A stretch of 10,205 bases of DNA from an uncultured Kineosporia sp. Lineage in GTDB: Bacteria > Actinomycetota > Actinomycetes > Actinomycetales > Kineosporiaceae. Under the pieces are notes generated by a model that saw nothing but the letters and a program-made list of their open reading frames with translations, searched no databases and was not told the DNA's origin. Position numbers and translations under genes: made by a program. The number at the start of each line of letters is the position of its first letter. Positions within the stretch are counted from its first letter, which is position 1. Positions 2,690-7,681 of this stretch are shown here, piece by piece. The DNA lies in NCBI GenBank assembly GCA_937859855.1, contig CALMAR010000489.1, forward strand, positions 3,488-13,692. Direction: 5' to 3'.

Positions 2690-2706
2690 CTGCTGCCTCC
2701 CTCCAT

Positions 2707-2741
2707 GCCGTCCGGCCGGGTGGCACTGCCCGGCCGACGGC
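2707..2741 (+). terminator. GC-rich hairpin after cysA, possible terminator
   Basis: The left arm (2707-2720) and right arm CCCGGCCGACGGC (2729-2741) form a 13-bp stem with one bulged C and the 8-nt loop TGGCACTG. No U-run follows, which is common for terminators in high-GC actinobacteria. The right arm ends in the first base of the -10-like CATAAT of the next gene, so the hairpin could instead be an operator or attenuating element. Confidence 0.5.
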
Positions 2742-2752
2742 ATAATCGGCTT
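2733..2752 (+). promoter_or_regulatory. Leaderless promoter (-10) of the first rrf2 gene, with dyad
   Basis: CATAAT at 2741-2746 is followed by 6 nt and then the GTG at 2753. Initiation at the usual distance would therefore fall on or beside the start codon, giving a leaderless mRNA; no Shine-Dalgarno sequence is visible. A perfect 5-bp dyad, GCCGA (2733-2737) and TCGGC (2746-2750), flanks the -10 and could be an autoregulatory operator. No convincing -35 box was found. Confidence 0.5.
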
Positions 2753-3202
2753 GTGGAGATCCTGGCCAAGACCGACTACGCGGTCCGGGCCATGTTGGAG
2801 CTGGCCGCCCAGGCTCCGCATCTGGTCAAGATCGACGCCTTGATACGGGAGCAGAAGATGCCCCGGAAGTTCCTTGAGTCGATCCTGGTCGACCTGCGCC
2901 GGGCGGGGCTGGTGCGCAGCCAGCGCGGTGCTGAGGGCGGCTATGCGCTGGCCGTTCCGGCTGACCAGGTCACCGTCGCGGCGATCATCCGGGCGGTGGA
3001 TGGCCCGCTGGCCGAGGTGCGGGGGCAGCGGCCCGAGCAGACTATTTACTCCGGAGTGGCCGAGCATCTGCCCGAGGTCTGGGTCGCGGTCCGGGCCAGT
3101 CTGCGCCGGGTGCTGGATGAGACGACGCTCCAGCAGGTGCTGGACGGCGAGCTGCCGGCCCACGTGCAGGAAATGCTGAAGCCGGCCGCGGCCTGGCGCT
3201 GA
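2753..3202 (+). CDS. Rrf2-family transcriptional regulator (first of tandem pair)
   Basis: This is a predicted DNA-binding winged-helix protein of 149 residues. The start is set at GTG 2753 (MEILAKTDYAVRAM), because Rrf2 proteins begin with this M-x-I-x-AKTDYA pattern; a start at 2705 would add 16 unrelated residues. The helix-turn-helix covers about residues 18-58 and the wing reads SQRGAEGGYALA. The C-terminal half (AIIRAVDGPLAEV, then PEVWVAVRASLRRVL) forms the dimerisation and sensor part. There is no cysteine at all, so it cannot bind an Fe-S cluster through the three cysteines used by IscR or NsrR. In this it resembles cysteine-free Rrf2 members such as CymR, a regulator of sulfur metabolism. 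The position 63 bp after cysA supports, but does not prove, a role in sulfate uptake. It ends in the 10-bp repeat array. Family call firm; target inferred. Confidence 0.88.
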   Translation: MEILAKTDYAVRAMLELAAQAPHLVKIDALIREQKMPRKFLESILVDLRRAGLVRSQRGAEGGYALAVPADQVTVAAIIRAVDGPLAEVRGQRPEQTIYSGVAEHLPEVWVAVRASLRRVLDETTLQQVLDGELPAHVQEMLKPAAAWR

Positions 3203-3257
3203 CCCGCGCTGACCCGCGCTGACCCGCGCTGACCCGCGCTGACCCGCGCTGACCCGC
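3195..3257 (+). repeat. Tandem 10-bp repeat (GACCCGCGCT)n between the rrf2 genes
   Basis: Five perfect head-to-tail copies of GACCCGCGCT occupy 3201-3250, followed by a 7-base partial copy (3251-3257) and preceded by a GCGCT remnant (3196-3200) that forms the last codons of the upstream gene. Each unit junction contains CGCTGACCC, the same bases as the natural stop context of the upstream gene, so the array looks like slippage expansion from the gene's 3' end. The 10-bp unit is not a multiple of three and is close to one helical turn. Confidence 0.95.
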
Positions 3258-3271
3258 TGGATGCTCGGGAC

Positions 3272-3306
3272 GTGACGACAAGGCCGTGCACGGCATGATG
3301 TGCCGG
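3272..3306 (+). promoter_or_regulatory. Leaderless promoter of the second rrf2 gene, with palindrome over -10
   Basis: GTGACG (3272-3277) and CATGAT (3294-3299) are spaced 16 bp, and the GTG start follows 7 nt after the -10, consistent with leaderless initiation. A palindrome CGGCA-TGATG-TGCCG (3291-3305) covers the -10. CGGCATGAT matches CGGCATAAT in front of the first paralogue in 8 of 9 positions, suggesting a shared promoter or operator. Confidence 0.5.
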
Positions 3307-3768
3307 GTGCGAATCTCCGCCAAGACCGACTACGCGCTGCGGGCCGCGCTGGAGCTGGCGGCGGCCCCGCCGGGTGCCTGGATCAAGACCGAGGCGGTAG
3401 CCGAGCGGCAGGCCATCCCGCTGCCGTTTCTGCTGAACATCCTCTCCGAGCTGCGCACTGCCGGCCTGGTGGAAAGCAGGCGTGGGGCTGAGGGCGGTTA
3501 CCGGCTGGCCCGGCCCCCGTCCTCGATCGTGCTGGCCGAAGTGATCCGGGCGGTCGACGGCCCGCTGGCCAACATCGCTGGTGAGGTTCCGGAGAACGTC
3601 GAATACGGCGGCGCGGCCGTGGCGCTGCGCGAGGTCTGGATCGCTCTTCGGGCGCGGATGCGGACCGTACTGGAGGGGATCACCCTGTCCGAGGCCGCGG
3701 ACGGCGTTCTGCCTGAGCAGGTGACCCAGATCCTGGAGGACCGGGACGTCTGGCAGGTCCGGCGCTGA
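3307..3768 (+). CDS. Rrf2-family transcriptional regulator (second of tandem pair)
   Basis: This is a predicted winged-helix regulator of 153 residues, paralogous to the gene just upstream. The start is placed at GTG 3307 (MRISAKTDYALRAALELA), which matches the family N-terminus exactly; a start at 3286 would only add an unsupported leader. Shared blocks with its neighbour are AKTDYA.RA, ELR.AGLV.S.RGAEGGY, VIRAVDGPLA, REVWIALRA and TL, then LPEQV. No cysteine is present, so classical Fe-S sensing is unlikely. The pair may have arisen by gene duplication, and the two proteins could form homo- or heterodimers. The gene ends 6 bp before the stop of the convergent bcp gene, leaving no room for a separate terminator. 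Regulatory target unknown; sulfate uptake is the contextual guess. Confidence 0.88.
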   Translation: MRISAKTDYALRAALELAAAPPGAWIKTEAVAERQAIPLPFLLNILSELRTAGLVESRRGAEGGYRLARPPSSIVLAEVIRAVDGPLANIAGEVPENVEYGGAAVALREVWIALRARMRTVLEGITLSEAADGVLPEQVTQILEDRDVWQVRR

Positions 3769-3774
3769 GAACGG

Positions 3775-4230
3775 TCAGAGGTTCAGATTGAGCACCTTGA
3801 GCGCCTCGTTGGCGTGCTTGCTCATGTTCAGCTCGCTGCTGATCACATCCATGATCGCTCCGTCGCTGCCGATCACGAAGGTGGCTCGCTTCACCGGGAC
3901 CGGCCCGAACCGCCGCTTCACCCCGAAGGCCTCGGCCACCCGGCGATCACTGTCAGCCACGAGCGGATAGTCGAAACCGTTGGTGTCGGAGAACTGCTTC
4001 TGCTTCTGCACGCCGTCCGCGCTGATTCCCAGCCGTTGCGCCCCGGCCTGGCTGAACTCGGCGCCCAGGTCGCGAAAGGTGCAGGCCTCAGCCGTGCAAC
4101 CCGAGGTCATGGCCGCCGGGTAGAAGAACAGCACCACCGGGCCGTTGGCCAGCATCCGGCTGAGCGTGACCGGTTCGCCGAACTGGTCGGGCAGGGTGAA
4201 ATCGGGTGCGCGATCACCGGCCTTGAGCAT
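3775..4230 (-). CDS. bcp: Thioredoxin-dependent thiol peroxidase, Bcp/PrxQ type
   Basis: This is a cytoplasmic peroxiredoxin that reduces hydrogen peroxide and organic hydroperoxides using thioredoxin-like donors. It has 151 residues, the usual Bcp length. The peroxidatic Cys45 lies in AAMTSGCTAEAC and the resolving Cys50 is five residues later, exactly the Bcp/PrxQ spacing. APDFTLPDQFGEPVTLS near the N-terminus and the conserved arginine in VKRATFVIG complete the active-site signature. The ATG at 4230 is chosen because AGGAGG sits 9 nt upstream and MLKAGDRAPDF matches the family start; an in-frame extension to 4320 adds unrelated sequence. It lies 95 bp downstream of hisG on the same strand and may be read with it or from its own promoter. 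No signal peptide is seen. Confidence 0.93.
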   Translation of the reverse strand: MLKAGDRAPDFTLPDQFGEPVTLSRMLANGPVVLFFYPAAMTSGCTAEACTFRDLGAEFSQAGAQRLGISADGVQKQKQFSDTNGFDYPLVADSDRRVAEAFGVKRRFGPVPVKRATFVIGSDGAIMDVISSELNMSKHANEALKVLNLNL

Positions 4231-4239
4231 GTGCGCCGT

Positions 4240-4245
4240 CCTCCT
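4240..4245 (-). promoter_or_regulatory. Ribosome-binding site of bcp
   Basis: On the minus strand AGGAGG lies 9 nt before the ATG at 4230. It decides the start against the longer in-frame alternative at 4320. Confidence 0.8.
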
Positions 4246-4325
4246 CGATGTGGATACTTCATGGAACTCGACGACGTCCGCCTGGATTCCGGCCTGCGGA
4301 GCCGAAAGCAGCGGCACCAATCGGC

Positions 4326-5324
4326 TCAGAACGGGGGCGGCGCCAGCGGCAGGCTGAGCCGGCCGTTGCGCGCCTCGGTACGAGCGCGAGCCACTTCGTC
4401 GTCCGAGTCGCTGTAGTAGATGGCCATCGCTGAGACCCAGGCATCGGAGGCACCGGCCCCGATCACCGCAGGCAGCGCCTGCGGTACGTACGCCCGTGGC
4501 AACGTGACCACCGCCGTGAACCCTTGGCCCTCAGCCAGTTCGGCCGAGCTGACCAGCCGGGCCTGAGTGCCGAGGATCTGCCCGTAATCGAGCTTGTGCG
4601 GCGTCACCACCCGCATCTCGACGAAGTCATTGGCCCGCAGCGCTCCCCGGATCAGATGGCAGATTCCATCCAGTTTCCGCCGCTTCCAGTCGTTATCGCG
4701 GTAGATCCGGCGATTGACGAAGAACTGGTTGATCGAGGTGAAGACGTCGGCGATCTCCCGCAGGTGGTTGGCCCGCAGCGACGCGCCGGTCTCGGTACCC
4801 TCGATGATCGCGTCGGCGAAGTACTCGGCCTTGGCCTCAGTTGCGCCCCAGGAGAACTCGACATGCGCATCGACACCTTGGCGGGCCAGCCACATCCGTG
4901 AGATCCGGGTCAGCTCGGTCGAGATCACGAACGGATCACCGGTGTCGCGGCGGCGGTCACATTCAGTCCGCAGATCTTCGGTCGTCCTGATCGGTGAGGA
5001 CTCGGGCACTGCCAGCACCCAGCGGATGGGGAGGCTTGTCTGCCGGGAGAACGGCAGCTCGGCCTTCACCGCGATGTGGTCCCGGACGTCCTGCTCAACG
5101 ATCCAGTCCCGCCCGGACAGCCCGGCGTCCAGCCGCCCGGAGCGGACGTAGATCGGGATCTCCTGCGGCTTCAGCAGCACCGGCACGATCTCGGGGTCAT
5201 TCGAGTTCAGCCACAGGCTGCGGGACGCGCCGGTGAACTGCAGCCCGACCCGTTCGAAGATCGCCAGCGTGGACGCCTCCAGGCTGCCCTTCGGGATGCC
5301 GAGGGTGAGCTGCGGGTGGGTCAC
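4326..5324 (-). CDS. hisG: ATP phosphoribosyltransferase, long form, atypical for actinobacteria
   Basis: HisG joins ATP and PRPP in the first, feedback-controlled step of histidine synthesis. At 332 residues it is longer than usual long-form HisG (about 285-300). Visible landmarks are LGIPKGSLE (8-16), the repeated sensor motif LDAGLSGRDWI (65-75), RWVLAVPESSP (101-111), FSWGATEAKAEYFADAI (157-173) and the PRPP-binding region EGTETGASLRAN (175-186). Residues about 236-305 (GFTAVVTLPRAYVPQALPAVIGAGA) look like a divergent ACT-like regulatory domain, so no HisZ partner should be needed. The WGATEAK, ETG.SLRAN and RWVLAVPE blocks recall, from memory, HisG of deltaproteobacteria and other non-actinobacterial phyla more than the mycobacterial enzyme. 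The GTG start overlaps the hisS stop as GTGA. The Ser/Asp-rich segment (305-310) and Pro-rich end (326-331) are unusual. Confidence 0.9.
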   Translation of the reverse strand: MTHPQLTLGIPKGSLEASTLAIFERVGLQFTGASRSLWLNSNDPEIVPVLLKPQEIPIYVRSGRLDAGLSGRDWIVEQDVRDHIAVKAELPFSRQTSLPIRWVLAVPESSPIRTTEDLRTECDRRRDTGDPFVISTELTRISRMWLARQGVDAHVEFSWGATEAKAEYFADAIIEGTETGASLRANHLREIADVFTSINQFFVNRRIYRDNDWKRRKLDGICHLIRGALRANDFVEMRVVTPHKLDYGQILGTQARLVSSAELAEGQGFTAVVTLPRAYVPQALPAVIGAGASDAWVSAMAIYYSDSDDEVARARTEARNGRLSLPLAPPPF

Positions 5325-6802
5325 GATCCGGCGCTCATGCCGGACAGGATGCTTATCACCGTGGGCACCAGCTCGGCCCGGGCAACCGTCTGCTGCCCGG
5401 CCGACCCTGCGGCCCGGAACTCCCGGTTGTCTTCGATCCCGGCTCGGGCCTGGCTGCCCGCGCTCAGATCCTTGACCGTCACCGTGCCGTCCCGCACCTC
5501 GTGGGTACCGATCATCAGGGCCGCACTGAAGCCACGGGCGTTGGCATAGGCCAGCTGCCTGCCCACCTTGCCGGCGGCATCTCCGACGTACAGCTCGCTG
5601 GCCACCCCAGCCCCCCGCAACTGATGCGCGGCCGCGCTGGCCACCACCGGATCGGTGCCGGGCATCATCAGGACCAGCACCTTGGCGGTGAGTGCGGCCT
5701 CCCCCAGCTCCAGACCCAGATTTCGGACGCCGGTGATCAGCCGGTCCAGGCCGATCGAAGCTCCCACGGCGGGCACCGGCTCATCGCTGAACCGGCTGAC
5801 CAGGCCGTCGTAACGCCCCCCGCCGAGCACCGATCCGACCCCGGCGCCGGTCAGGGTGCCCTCGTACACGGTGCCGGTGTAATAGGCCAGGCCACGGGCC
5901 AGGCTGGGATCCAGACGGGCTGCGGCCTCGCTCACGCCGAGCGCATCCAAGTGCCCCAGCAACTGCCTGATTTGCTCGAACGCGGCCTCCGCGAGAGCGC
6001 TGGGGGCGATCCGCCGGGCCAGCGCATCAGCGATCCCGGCCCGGCTGTCACCGGTCACGGCGGCAAAATCGAGCACCGCGTCGATGATCGCGGCGCTCAA
6101 TCCGACTCCGGGGATCCGGTCGCCGGAAACGTCGTGGCGGCCCGGGCCGAGCTCGGCCCGCAGTTGCGCCGGTGTGATCTTGTCGGCCTTGTCGAGCACC
6201 CGGAGCACGTGCTGCGCCACGGACGGATCGACCAGGCCGAGACCGGCCAGGAAGGCGTCCACCAGCTGGCGGTTGTTGAACCGGATGAAGTAGCCGGGAG
6301 CCGAGCCGTCCAGCCGGGCCGGGGTCAGCCCGAGGCTCTCGAAGGCCGCGCTCATCACCGCGACGATCTCCGCGTCCGCGGCGATCGACGAGGTCCCGGC
6401 GATGTCGATGTCGAGCTGAGTGAATTGCCGGAACCGGCCCTGCTCGGGCTGGGGGTCGTCCGCCCGGAAAACCGGCCCGAGGTGGTAGCGCCGGAACGGC
6501 AACCGGATCTCCTGCGGATGGTGCGCAGCGATGAACCGGGCGAACGGGACGGTCAGGTCGAAACGCATCCCGGCCGGATCATCGGCTGAGATGTTGACCG
6601 TGAACATCAACTTGTCGGTCTCGTCTCCGCCGGTTCCGGTCAGGGTCACCAGGGATTCCAGCACCGGGGTATCCATCGGCAGATAACCGAACGACTCGTA
6701 CACGCGGCGGATCCGCTCGACCACCTGATTGAAGACGACCATCTCGCCGGGCAGCACATCCCGGAACCCGCGCAGTGTCTGGGGGCGCACTAAGCGGCTC
6801 AT
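5321..6802 (-). CDS. hisS: Histidyl-tRNA synthetase, eukaryote/alphaproteobacteria-like type
   Basis: This class II synthetase charges tRNA-His with histidine. It has 493 residues: a catalytic core to about 365 and an anticodon-binding domain at about 373-490. Landmarks are motif 1 with TPVLE (45-49), FDLTVPFARF (81-90), motif 2 with RRYHLGPVFRADDP (104-117), GRFRQFTQLDIDIAG (122-136), histidine A motif RGLAYYTG (303-310), GGGRYDGL (327-334) and motif 3 with GASIGLDRL (347-355). DLTVPFAR, RRYH and QFTQLDIDIAG follow human/yeast-type HisRS; common bacterial HisRS have GRYRQFHQ-GCEVFG-like sequence instead. RGLDYY is altered to RGLAYY. It is not HisZ, because the histidine-binding motifs are largely intact and hisG is long-form. 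The ATG start has AAGGA 9 nt upstream. It lies 45 bp after tRNA-His and overlaps hisG. Confidence 0.93.
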   Translation of the reverse strand: MSRLVRPQTLRGFRDVLPGEMVVFNQVVERIRRVYESFGYLPMDTPVLESLVTLTGTGGDETDKLMFTVNISADDPAGMRFDLTVPFARFIAAHHPQEIRLPFRRYHLGPVFRADDPQPEQGRFRQFTQLDIDIAGTSSIAADAEIVAVMSAAFESLGLTPARLDGSAPGYFIRFNNRQLVDAFLAGLGLVDPSVAQHVLRVLDKADKITPAQLRAELGPGRHDVSGDRIPGVGLSAAIIDAVLDFAAVTGDSRAGIADALARRIAPSALAEAAFEQIRQLLGHLDALGVSEAAARLDPSLARGLAYYTGTVYEGTLTGAGVGSVLGGGRYDGLVSRFSDEPVPAVGASIGLDRLITGVRNLGLELGEAALTAKVLVLMMPGTDPVVASAAAHQLRGAGVASELYVGDAAGKVGRQLAYANARGFSAALMIGTHEVRDGTVTVKDLSAGSQARAGIEDNREFRAAGSAGQQTVARAELVPTVISILSGMSAGS

Positions 6803-6811
6803 CTGAAGGTG

Positions 6812-6816
6812 TCCTT
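6812..6816 (-). promoter_or_regulatory. Ribosome-binding site of hisS
   Basis: On the minus strand AAGGA lies 9 nt before the hisS ATG, in the 45-nt gap after tRNA-His. No promoter was recognised in this gap, so processing of the tRNA 3' end could create the hisS mRNA 5' end. Confidence 0.65.
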
Positions 6817-6847
6817 AGGCACGGGCGTCGAGAACTGGAGCGTGCGG

Positions 6848-6918
6848 TACCGGGAACGGGTATCGAACCCGTGCCTCCTGATCCACAATCAGGTGCTCTA
6901 CCACTGAGCTATCCCGGC
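6848..6918 (-). tRNA. tRNA-His (anticodon GTG), lacking encoded G-1, with U72 and A73
   Basis: It folds as a full cloverleaf on the minus strand. Acceptor GCCGGGA pairs with TCCCGGT; D arm is GCTC-AGTGGTA-GAGC; anticodon arm CCTGA-TTGTGGA-TCAGG has GTG in the loop; variable loop is AGGC; T arm is ACGGG-TTCGATA-CCCGT. Fixing U8-A9 before the D stem places G at position 1, opposite U72 (a G-U pair), with discriminator A73 at 6848. The base at -1 is A. Ordinary bacterial tRNA-His encodes G-1 paired with C73, so this gene lacks the canonical histidine identity element. CCA is not encoded (ACCG). The D loop is short, with no 20a base. It sits 45 bp upstream of hisS on the same strand. Confidence 0.95.
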
Positions 6919-6946
6919 TGATAGTGCCGTCTGGCCGCGCGCCAAC

Positions 6947-6955
6947 ACCTTAGCA
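6947..6955 (-). promoter_or_regulatory. Possible extended -10 promoter for tRNA-His/hisS
   Basis: On the minus strand TGCTAAGGT fits an extended -10 (TGnTAnnnT) about 28 nt before the tRNA 5' end, in the 40-bp gap after the M15-family gene. No good -35 was found, so this is tentative. Confidence 0.35.
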
Positions 6956-6958
6956 GAG

Positions 6959-7681
6959 TCACAGCCGCAACTCATGGGGATCCACTTTCTGGGCATCCGC
7001 GAGAGACACCTGTGCATAGAGTGCGCCGGGCTTGCGATGATAGCGGGCCCATTCTTTGTCGCCGTAAGAGAAATGCCACCACTCGCCATCGTACGGCGCG
7101 AATCCAGCCGCCATCATCGCTCGCCGCAGCAATTGGCGGTTCTCCCATGCCGCTCGGGATATGAATGGTGAGAAGGTGAACGAGTCCCGGGACGCCGCCA
7201 GTACCCGGCTGCCCATATCGACCGGCTCACCCTCACTGAGCAGGTCCACTCCGACCGCTCCGCCGGTCGGGCGCCCGGCCACCGACGGCACTGCGATGTG
7301 CCGATGAGCAGCCTCGGTGCGCTCCTCCTCGTCCGGGAACTCTTCTAGCAGACTGTTTTTGGCGGCCTCGAAGAGCTTGGCCTGCAGTTCCAGGGCGCGG
7401 AAGCCATAGATCACCCGCAGGGTCAGCGAGCGGTCGAGGTTCTTCAGTTCCTGTCCAGCCCAATAGAGCAGGTCGACCAGCGGACGGCGGACGTAGATGG
7501 TGCCGCCGGTGAGTGCGGCCATGTCCGGATCGAGCTGAGCCACCTGCAGGACGCCTTGCGAACGGAGCGCCTCGAAAAGCACCGGCTCTTCGGCCGGAAT
7601 GACCTCGACTCCGGCATAGTCGGAATACTTGAGCATCTTCTCCTCGAGCCGCTGATAAACGACGTCCTCGATTTCCGTCAT
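6959..7681 (-). CDS. VanX-like M15 family protein with substituted zinc ligands
   Basis: The fold resembles D-Ala-D-Ala dipeptidases (VanX/DdpX, family M15), zinc enzymes that split the dipeptide. In the 240 residues, VIYGFRALELQ carries the conserved Arg (95), VDMGS (154-158) matches the family's DMGT, and EWWHF supplies the catalytic Glu200 and third zinc ligand His203. The first two zinc ligands, expected in a HPTGGAVD-type motif, are replaced: the sequence reads GRPTGGAVGVDL (136-147), with Arg137 for His and Gly144 for Asp. An Asp at 146 is shifted by two. It may be inactive as a dipeptidase or bind metal differently. No signal peptide is seen. The ATG at 7681 is preferred over a TTG at 7726, although neither has a strong ribosome-binding site. 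GC is lower (hand-counted lines 52-60%) than in flanking genes, which hints at transfer. Confidence 0.75.
   Translation of the reverse strand: MTEIEDVVYQRLEEKMLKYSDYAGVEVIPAEEPVLFEALRSQGVLQVAQLDPDMAALTGGTIYVRRPLVDLLYWAGQELKNLDRSLTLRVIYGFRALELQAKLFEAAKNSLLEEFPDEEERTEAAHRHIAVPSVAGRPTGGAVGVDLLSEGEPVDMGSRVLAASRDSFTFSPFISRAAWENRQLLRRAMMAAGFAPYDGEWWHFSYGDKEWARYHRKPGALYAQVSLADAQKVDPHELRL

What the first reader, a model, noticed from the sequence alone, without database searches (positions are those of the whole stretch)
5321..6918. A divergent, probably orthogonal tRNA-His/HisRS pair encoded side by side in an actinobacterium-like genome
Seen: the tRNA-His gene has no encoded G-1 (the base is A), carries G1-U72 and A73, and sits 45 bp upstream of a HisRS with eukaryote-like motifs (DLTVPFAR, RRYH, QFTQLDIDIAG). 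Known: nearly all bacteria need G-1:C73 for histidylation. A group of alphaproteobacteria including Caulobacter lost G-1 and uses the anticodon, A73 and U72, read by a divergent HisRS. Inference: the same identity switch occurs here, with synthetase and tRNA linked in one probable transcript, so both halves could have moved together. I do not know of this being described for actinobacteria.
Basis: partly seen in the sequence, partly recalled or inferred. Interest (0 to 1): 0.9.

Follow-up and report, generated by a model that had tools for sequence, protein, structure and literature searches.

The report
Foreign histidine tRNA-synthetase cassette in actinobacteria
This stretch of actinobacterium-like DNA carries, side by side, a histidine tRNA gene without its usual extra 5' G, a matching unusual enzyme that should load it, and a histidine-making gene; the pair belongs to a lineage known so far mainly from alphaproteobacteria and looks to have been acquired from outside the actinobacteria.

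Summary
The tRNA-His (6848-6918, -) has A at -1, G1:U72 and A73, and lies 45 bp upstream of hisS (5321-6802, -), which overlaps hisG by 4 bp. The HisRS is not ordinary actinobacterial: in a 75-sequence tree it joins Kineosporia sequences in a fully supported clade, inside a larger clade with Hydrogenedentota, Planctomycetota, some Acidobacteriota and G-1-less alphaproteobacteria; joining it with canonical actinobacterial HisRS is rejected (p-AU 1.25e-5). In relatives the tRNA follows the HisRS type: 87 of 88 genomes read have A73 (one G73), 86 U72; 20 of 20 with other HisRS have G-1 and C73. 39 of 39 tested have one hisS over the cut-off. tRNA-His is directly upstream of hisS in 17 such genomes; hisS and hisG share contigs in Kineosporia. 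Best reading: a G-1-independent histidine identity system acquired as a linked cassette. The kind is known from alphaproteobacteria; its presence in Actinomycetota, the longer motif-2 loop and the tRNA-hisS-hisG linkage were not found in the papers searched. The window's own genome is not held, so a second canonical pair, the mature 5' end and charging are untested.

The parts
6848..6918 (-). tRNA-His(GUG), G1 to A73; A at -1 (6919), G1:U72, A73; CC encoded at the 3' end, then G
6803..6847 (-). 45-bp spacer between tRNA A73 and hisS ATG; no terminator-like site on this strand
5321..6802 (-). hisS: divergent histidyl-tRNA synthetase, 493 aa
   Evidence: TIGR00442 324 bits; tree
6422..6466 (-). 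HisRS motif-2 loop RADDPQPEQGRFRQF (residues 113-127), two residues longer than in E. coli, alphaproteobacterial and most related enzymes
5342..5428 (-). HisRS C-terminal tail (DNREFRAAGSAGQQTVARAELV...), shared by A73-type enzymes and absent from the canonical ones aligned
4326..5324 (-). hisG: ATP phosphoribosyltransferase, 332 aa, starts inside the end of hisS (GTGA overlap)
   Evidence: TIGR00070 126 bits, PF01634; same-contig partner of this hisS
3775..4320 (-). peroxiredoxin (Bcp/PrxQ-like) gene 5 bp after hisG, possibly co-transcribed; not shown to be part of the system

Best explanation
A complete alternative histidine identity system. The HisRS charges a tRNA-His that does not carry G-1; instead of the G-1:C73 pair it reads the G1:U72 wobble pair and A73 at the acceptor end, plus the GUG anticodon. 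The enzyme lineage is shared with Hydrogenedentota, Planctomycetota, some Acidobacteriota and the G-1-less alphaproteobacteria. An ancestor of a Kineosporia-like actinobacterial group acquired it horizontally, probably as one linked stretch (tRNA-His, hisS, hisG), and it replaced the resident G-1/C73 pair; because tRNA and enzyme arrive together the recipient need not pass through a state in which its tRNA is uncharged. Shown: gene arrangement, tRNA gene sequence, HisRS phylogeny, association of HisRS type and tRNA type in relatives, single hisS in relatives. Inferred: absence of N-1 in the mature tRNA, use of U72/A73 for charging, replacement in this genome, one-block transfer.
For: tRNA features. 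Tree of 75 HisRS: window in an 18-row clade with Kineosporia (100/100), inside a 54-row A73-type clade (97/92); the 7 canonical actinobacterial rows lie outside it. AU test rejects the 18 rows plus 6 canonical actinobacterial rows as one clade, p 1.25e-5; one change of tRNA type on the tree. Covariation: first set, 31 A73-type genomes all U72 with A73 (30) or G73 (1), and 8 others all G-1/C73; Hydrogenedentota, 51 more genomes all A73, 49 with U72; Acidobacteriota, 6 more U72/A73 and 12 canonical G-1/C73 in one phylum. tRNA-His directly upstream of hisS: 4 of 31 in the first set, 10 Hydrogenedentota genomes, 3 more Acidobacteriota. One hisS over the cut-off in 39 of 39. Thg1 in 1 of 38 relatives. 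The hisS and hisG lists share 24 exact contig lengths, 0 or 1 in ten shifted controls, among them Kineosporia sp. J2-2 and K. mesophila. Role of G1:U72/A73 for an alphaproteobacterial HisRS: PMC7590224, passages.
Against: The window's genome is not held, so a second hisS or tRNA-His is not excluded there. No actinobacterial genome could be searched, so within this clade the tRNA itself is seen in the window alone. The actinobacterial host rests on named Kineosporia HisRS/HisG and weak plasmid matches of flanking genes. No convincing hisG beside hisS in the 30 Hydrogenedentota loci read (about 1.5 kb flanks), so the three-gene block is not shown for the whole clade. The motif-2 loop lacks the Gly reported for alphaproteobacteria, and no single loop residue predicts the tRNA type. 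11 of 88 A73-type genomes have G at the -1 DNA position and 2 have C72. In 8 A73-type genomes no tRNA-His was found in what was fetched. The tRNA model was built from 6 A73 genes and 1 C73 gene, so its ranking favours A73. Some deeper branches of the tree are weak or long.
Confidence: 0.82

Rival explanations
1. A supernumerary pair: the organism keeps a canonical HisRS and G-1/C73 tRNA-His, and this pair is an extra, for example tolerant of a HisRS inhibitor or dedicated to a special use.
For: Own genome not held. Extra hisS genes do occur on plasmids: 100 PLSDB records match, e.g. hdcA-hdcB-hisS in Tetragenococcus.
Against: 39 of 39 genomes with this HisRS type have only one hisS above the curated cut-off. 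Five named Kineosporia isolates carry the orthologue, as expected of a stable, essential gene.
Confidence: 0.1
2. Eukaryote-like maturation: G-1 is added after transcription opposite A73 by a Thg1-like enzyme (or RNase P leaves A-1), and the HisRS needs this extra base.
For: A73, and a motif-2 loop of the same length as the human one (DNPAMTRGR); eukaryotic tRNA-His has added G-1 (PMC9976931, section).
Against: Thg1 (PF04446) found in 1 of 38 relatives searched, 1 of 32 with the A73-type HisRS. The same acceptor end works without G-1 in alphaproteobacteria (PMC9976931; PMC7590224). Not testable in the window's genome.
Confidence: 0.06
3. Independent (convergent) identity switch inside actinobacteria, with vertical descent of HisRS.
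For: The clade-specific two-residue loop insertion shows local evolution at the recognition site.
Against: AU test p 1.25e-5 against joining with canonical actinobacterial HisRS; tRNA closest, among those compared, to tRNAs of other phyla with the same HisRS type (67 of 75 columns to one from the Acidobacteriota set; best canonical tRNA-His 54 of 75; no canonical actinobacterial tRNA-His was available).
Confidence: 0.03
4. Contaminant or chimeric contig: the segment is not actinobacterial at all.
For: Host lineage not directly shown; no genome held.
Against: Orthologues at 63-67% in named Kineosporia isolates on contigs up to 8.07 Mb (P0049), their HisG at 78%; even GC of 63-71% over the window.
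Confidence: 0.04

Closest known systems
G-1-less tRNA-His/HisRS pair of alphaproteobacteria (Caulobacter crescentus, 'RRCH clade'; Ardell & Andersson 2006, Wang et al. 2007, Yuan et al. 2011, known here only through passages of PMC9976931, PMC3937112, PMC5370408 and PMC7590224 and from recall)
   Same: No encoded G-1, G1:U72, A73; HisRS in the same supported clade; C-terminal tail shared
   Different: Different phylum; HisRS outside the alphaproteobacterial clade (which is 100/99 and branches among Planctomycetota sequences); motif-2 loop PQPEQGR instead of KPGPGR; tRNA, hisS and hisG adjacent
Eukaryotic cytosolic tRNA-His/HisRS
   Same: A73; motif-2 loop of the same length as the human enzyme
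   Different: Eukaryotes add G-1 with Thg1, found in 1 of 38 relatives searched here; eukaryotes were not in the tree
Canonical bacterial tRNA-His/HisRS (E. coli; Nonomuraea for the enzyme)
   Same: GUG anticodon; HisRS family
   Different: G-1, C72 and C73 in the tRNA; PQxGRYRQ loop; no C-terminal tail; far apart in the tree
G-1-independent HisRS of Trypanosoma brucei and Acanthamoeba castellanii (Rao & Jackman 2015, as cited in PMC9976931)
   Same: tRNA-His without G-1 charged by an unusual HisRS
   Different: Eukaryotic; sequences not compared here

Membership tests
G-1-less tRNA-His/HisRS pair (alphaproteobacterial kind) | tRNA-His gene does not encode G-1 | tested here: met
   Base -1 is A
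G-1-less tRNA-His/HisRS pair (alphaproteobacterial kind) | A73 and G1:U72 in the acceptor end | tested here: met
G-1-less tRNA-His/HisRS pair (alphaproteobacterial kind) | HisRS of the lineage that goes with A73 | tested here: met
   54-row clade 97/92; tRNA type follows HisRS type in 88 + 20 genomes read
G-1-less tRNA-His/HisRS pair (alphaproteobacterial kind) | Gly in place of Gln in the motif-2 loop (PMC3937112, legend of Figure S1) | tested here: not met
   The window has a longer loop with Glu-Gln before Gly-Arg. The paper gives the Gly as a mark of the alphaproteobacterial clade; other A73-type enzymes also vary here
G-1-less tRNA-His/HisRS pair (alphaproteobacterial kind) | Mature tRNA lacks N-1 and is charged through U72/A73/anticodon | not testable with these tools
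   Needs RNA sequencing and charging assays
G-1-less tRNA-His/HisRS pair (alphaproteobacterial kind) | Only HisRS/tRNA-His of the genome | tested here: inconclusive
   Own genome not held; 39 of 39 relatives have one hisS over the cut-off
Canonical bacterial tRNA-His/HisRS | G-1:C73 | tested here: not met
   A-1, A73; the E. coli control gives G-1, C73
Canonical actinobacterial HisRS | Groups with actinobacterial HisRS; PQxGRYRQ loop | tested here: not met
   loop present in 120 of 120 listed relatives of Nonomuraea HisRS, absent here
Eukaryotic-type tRNA-His maturation | Thg1 adds G-1 | tested here: inconclusive
   Own genome not searchable; Thg1 in 1 of 38 relatives

The most novel reading that the evidence does not exclude
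Histidine tRNA identity can be replaced wholesale by a travelling cassette: tRNA-His(U72/A73), its HisRS and sometimes hisG form a self-sufficient unit of an old bacterial lineage (widespread in Hydrogenedentota, present in Planctomycetota, sporadic in Acidobacteriota) that displaced the G-1/C73 system in a Kineosporia-like actinobacterial group and, separately, in the ancestor of the G-1-less alphaproteobacteria. The alphaproteobacterial trait, described as having arisen once in bacteria, would then be one recipient of a widespread second rule for histidine rather than its origin.
Probability: 0.55. Interest if true: 0.82.

Novelty: new variant of a known kind. Interest (0 to 1): 0.7.

Why it matters
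[quoted passage not shown] If a second rule set for histidine exists in five phyla (by record titles: Hydrogenedentota, Planctomycetota, Acidobacteriota, Pseudomonadota and, through Kineosporia, Actinomycetota) and moves as a linked pair, it shows how a tRNA identity rule can be swapped by gene transfer, gives a testable bacterial source for the alphaproteobacterial enzyme, and supplies many new HisRS/tRNA pairs, including ones from cultured Kineosporia, that may be orthogonal to E. coli for code engineering.

Tried and rejected
Phage origin: one scan of viral contigs with the HisRS found no relative. Plasmid origin: tblastn of PLSDB gave 100 records, all under 60% identity; the best ones are alphaproteobacterial. 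HisZ instead of HisRS: rejected, the hisZ model scores 163.6 bits (its cut-off is 271.65) against 324.4 for hisS. Motif-2 'PQ' as sole predictor of the tRNA type: rejected; Acidobacteriota enzymes with PARGR or PGRGR loops still go with G-1/C73, and some A73-type enzymes have KPDKGR. AlphaFold2 model (mean pLDDT 78.6): pLDDT under 50 at residues 113-125, the loop in question, so no structural claim is made and no fold search was run. The first automatic reading of the acceptor register was off by one in several tRNAs and was replaced. In one search the row L148 is a neighbouring E. coli tRNA-Arg, not its tRNA-His. Rows left out of the counts: no tRNA-His in what was fetched for G006, G033, G036 (first set), G264, G283 (Acidobacteriota) and G046, G065, G068, G075, G100, G105, G107 (Hydrogenedentota); G054, G069, G106 (A73) and G096 (G73) have the tRNA but no HisRS match; L217 was skipped by the script because it ends at the contig end and was read by eye from the printed line (U72, A73).
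Full report
What is there. The tRNA-His gene (6848-6918, minus strand) has A at -1, G1:U72 and A73. hisS starts 45 bp downstream (5321-6802, 493 aa; TIGR00442 324.4 bits, cut-off 286.75), overlaps hisG (4326-5324) by GTGA, and a peroxiredoxin gene follows 5 bp after hisG. In 6500-7300 no terminator-like site was found on this strand, and no promoter-like site with a sigma-70 consensus scan, which may suit actinobacteria poorly.

Relatives of the enzyme. A protein search (120 best listed of 5713 with E up to 1e-20 among 7997 scored candidates) gives unnamed sequences at up to 81%, five named Kineosporia isolates at 63-67% (P0038, P0042, P0043, P0049, P0051), a Kineosporiaceae MAG (P0025, 69%) and a Pseudonocardiaceae MAG (P0040, 65%); at about 48-53% come further sequences, a few of them named Verrucomicrobiae, Omnitrophica, Planctomycetes and Abditibacteriaceae. 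Flanking genes match plasmid records loosely (aminotransferase 58.5% Streptomyces, CysA 59.3% Tsukamurella, M15 peptidase 41% Mesorhizobium with Streptomyces next), so the actinobacterial host is likely but not proven.

Tree. 75 HisRS sequences (IQ-TREE, LG+C20+F+G4 by PMSF): the window lies with P0002 and P0005, then with the Kineosporia group, in an 18-row clade at 100/100; with Hydrogenedentota and the roughly 50% set in a 31-row clade at 100/100; and in a 54-row clade at 97/92 that also has Planctomycetota, Acidobacteriota and 13 alphaproteobacteria (100/99, branching among Planctomycetota sequences in an 18-row clade at 100/100). Seven canonical actinobacterial rows lie outside (group branch 97/97; one of them, L139, is a long branch). 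Forcing the 18 rows and six canonical actinobacterial rows (without L139) into one clade costs 123.4 log units, p-AU 1.25e-5. Four long branches are flagged, and the branch joining the alphaproteobacterial and actinobacterial parts to the exclusion of L008 is only 87/91.

Covariation. A tRNA-His covariance model (R1, from 6 A73 genes and 1 C73 gene, so its ranking favours A73) was run on 42 relatives' genomes (one of 43 requested was not held) and again on unread ones. tRNA-His could be read in 39 of 42: all 31 with the divergent HisRS have G1:U72 and A73 (30) or G73 (1, a Phenylobacterium MAG), -1 base T 22, C 4, G 3, A 2; all 8 with canonical HisRS have G-1 and C73, as has the E. coli control. 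In the phylum group of G001 (Hydrogenedentota) 60 of 68 genomes match the window HisRS at E 1e-60; motif-2 loops were read in 28 of the 30 loci fetched, all of the A73 kind (one more), the other genomes are classed by match score alone. tRNA-His was read in 53 of these 60 (two already counted): the 51 new ones all have A73, 49 with U72 and 2 with C72. In Acidobacteriota 39 of 247 genomes sampled had a match at E 1e-50; of the 30 loci read, 7 are of the divergent type and 23 canonical. Among 20 of these genomes searched for tRNA, 6 of 6 divergent ones (G003 being already counted) have U72/A73, and 12 of 14 canonical ones, those with a readable tRNA-His, have G-1/C73. Total: 88 genomes of one type (87 A73, 1 G73; 86 U72, 2 C72) and 20 of the other (all G-1 and C73); no genome read mixes the types. 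G at the -1 DNA position occurs in 11 of the 88.

What distinguishes the enzyme. All 120 listed relatives of Nonomuraea HisRS have PQxGRYRQ in motif 2. Among the 120 relatives of the window enzyme, those at 53% or less mostly have KPGPGR-like loops, while those above have a loop two residues longer, PQPEQGR in most, the length of the human loop. The A73-type enzymes aligned also have a C-terminal tail (xxGQxTVxRxxLV) that canonical ones lack. No single loop residue predicts the tRNA type: Acidobacteriota HisRS with PARGR go with C73, and KPDKGR occurs with A73.

Linkage. tRNA-His lies directly upstream of hisS (under 400 bp), same strand, in G003, G008, G009 and G012 (4 of 31 in the first set), in ten Hydrogenedentota genomes (G047, G048, G058, G059, G088, G089, G090, G091, G103, G104), of which G088 and G089 hold the two best HisRS matches of that phylum, and in three more Acidobacteriota (G137, G179, G182). 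Of 30 Acidobacteriota loci, 4 of 7 divergent and 0 of 23 canonical hisS have tRNA-His within about 1.5 kb (at least one canonical locus, L240, has no upstream sequence). In most genomes of the lineage the two genes are apart or on separate contigs. hisG: the two protein lists (119 entries each besides the window) share 24 exact contig lengths, ten shifted controls give 0 or 1, so hisS and hisG very probably lie on the same contig in Kineosporia and other members of the clade, and in two more distant cases (P0085/P0306, P0107/P0315). In the 30 Hydrogenedentota loci (about 1.5 kb flanks) only one weak 25% hisG match appears, and in 22 alphaproteobacterial loci a hisG lies about 1-1.5 kb beyond hisS. 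Thus tRNA-hisS linkage recurs across the lineage, while close hisG linkage is seen mainly in the actinobacterial part.

Is it the only system? 39 of 39 genomes with this HisRS have exactly one hisS over the cut-off; four have a second, weaker match below it. Thg1 was found in 1 of 38 (G010). For the window itself neither can be tested.

Comparison with print. The 2023 review reports bacterial divergence in some alphaproteobacteria only, besides some protists (PMC9976931, section 24 and passages). [quoted passage not shown] PMC5370408 (passages) says a later study did not support a eukaryotic source. PMC7590224 (passages) shows in vivo that an alphaproteobacterial HisRS relies on G1:U72 and A73. 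PMC3875453 and PMC7609411 were seen in passages. Eight searches of the open-licence library (listings and abstract starts seen, only 15 of 3862) showed no report for actinobacteria, Planctomycetota, Acidobacteriota or Hydrogenedentota; the three founding papers are not held, so what they say beyond these citations I have not seen.

Verdict. Charging, mature 5' end and single-copy status in this organism are still open.

Noticed in passing
window 3196-3257: Perfect 10-bp tandem repeat (GCGCTGACCC, 6.2 copies) at the end of the first of two adjacent Rrf2-family regulator genes (2705-3202 and 3286-3768, +) downstream of sulfate-transport genes with cysA at 1718-2689.
   Followed up: no
P0272, P0275: Two Nocardia isolates (NPDC057440, NPDC050697) carry the cassette-type HisG (73%, 69%) although no Nocardia HisRS is among the 120 listed.
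   Followed up: no
L002 / G002: A contig titled Nitrospiraceae MAG lies in the same phylum group as the Hydrogenedentota genome G001, so its title is probably wrong.
   Followed up: partly
alphaproteobacterial rows of the tree: The G-1-less alphaproteobacterial HisRS branch among Planctomycetota sequences, suggesting a bacterial source of that enzyme; eukaryotes were not in the tree.
   Followed up: partly
L118 (G013, Phenylobacterium MAG); L321 (G096): tRNA-His with U72 but G73 instead of A73; no HisRS match was found for G096.
   Followed up: no
L228, L230 (G047, G048, Hydrogenedentota): tRNA-His with A73 but G1:C72, so U72 is not invariant in this lineage.
   Followed up: no
G010, L232: A Planctomycetota genome with an A73-type HisRS also has a Thg1-family gene.
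   Followed up: no
L142 (Tetragenococcus plasmid pHDC-RI): hdcA-hdcB-hisS cluster on a mobilizable plasmid: a hisS that groups with E. coli in the tree stands next to histidine decarboxylase genes.
   Followed up: no
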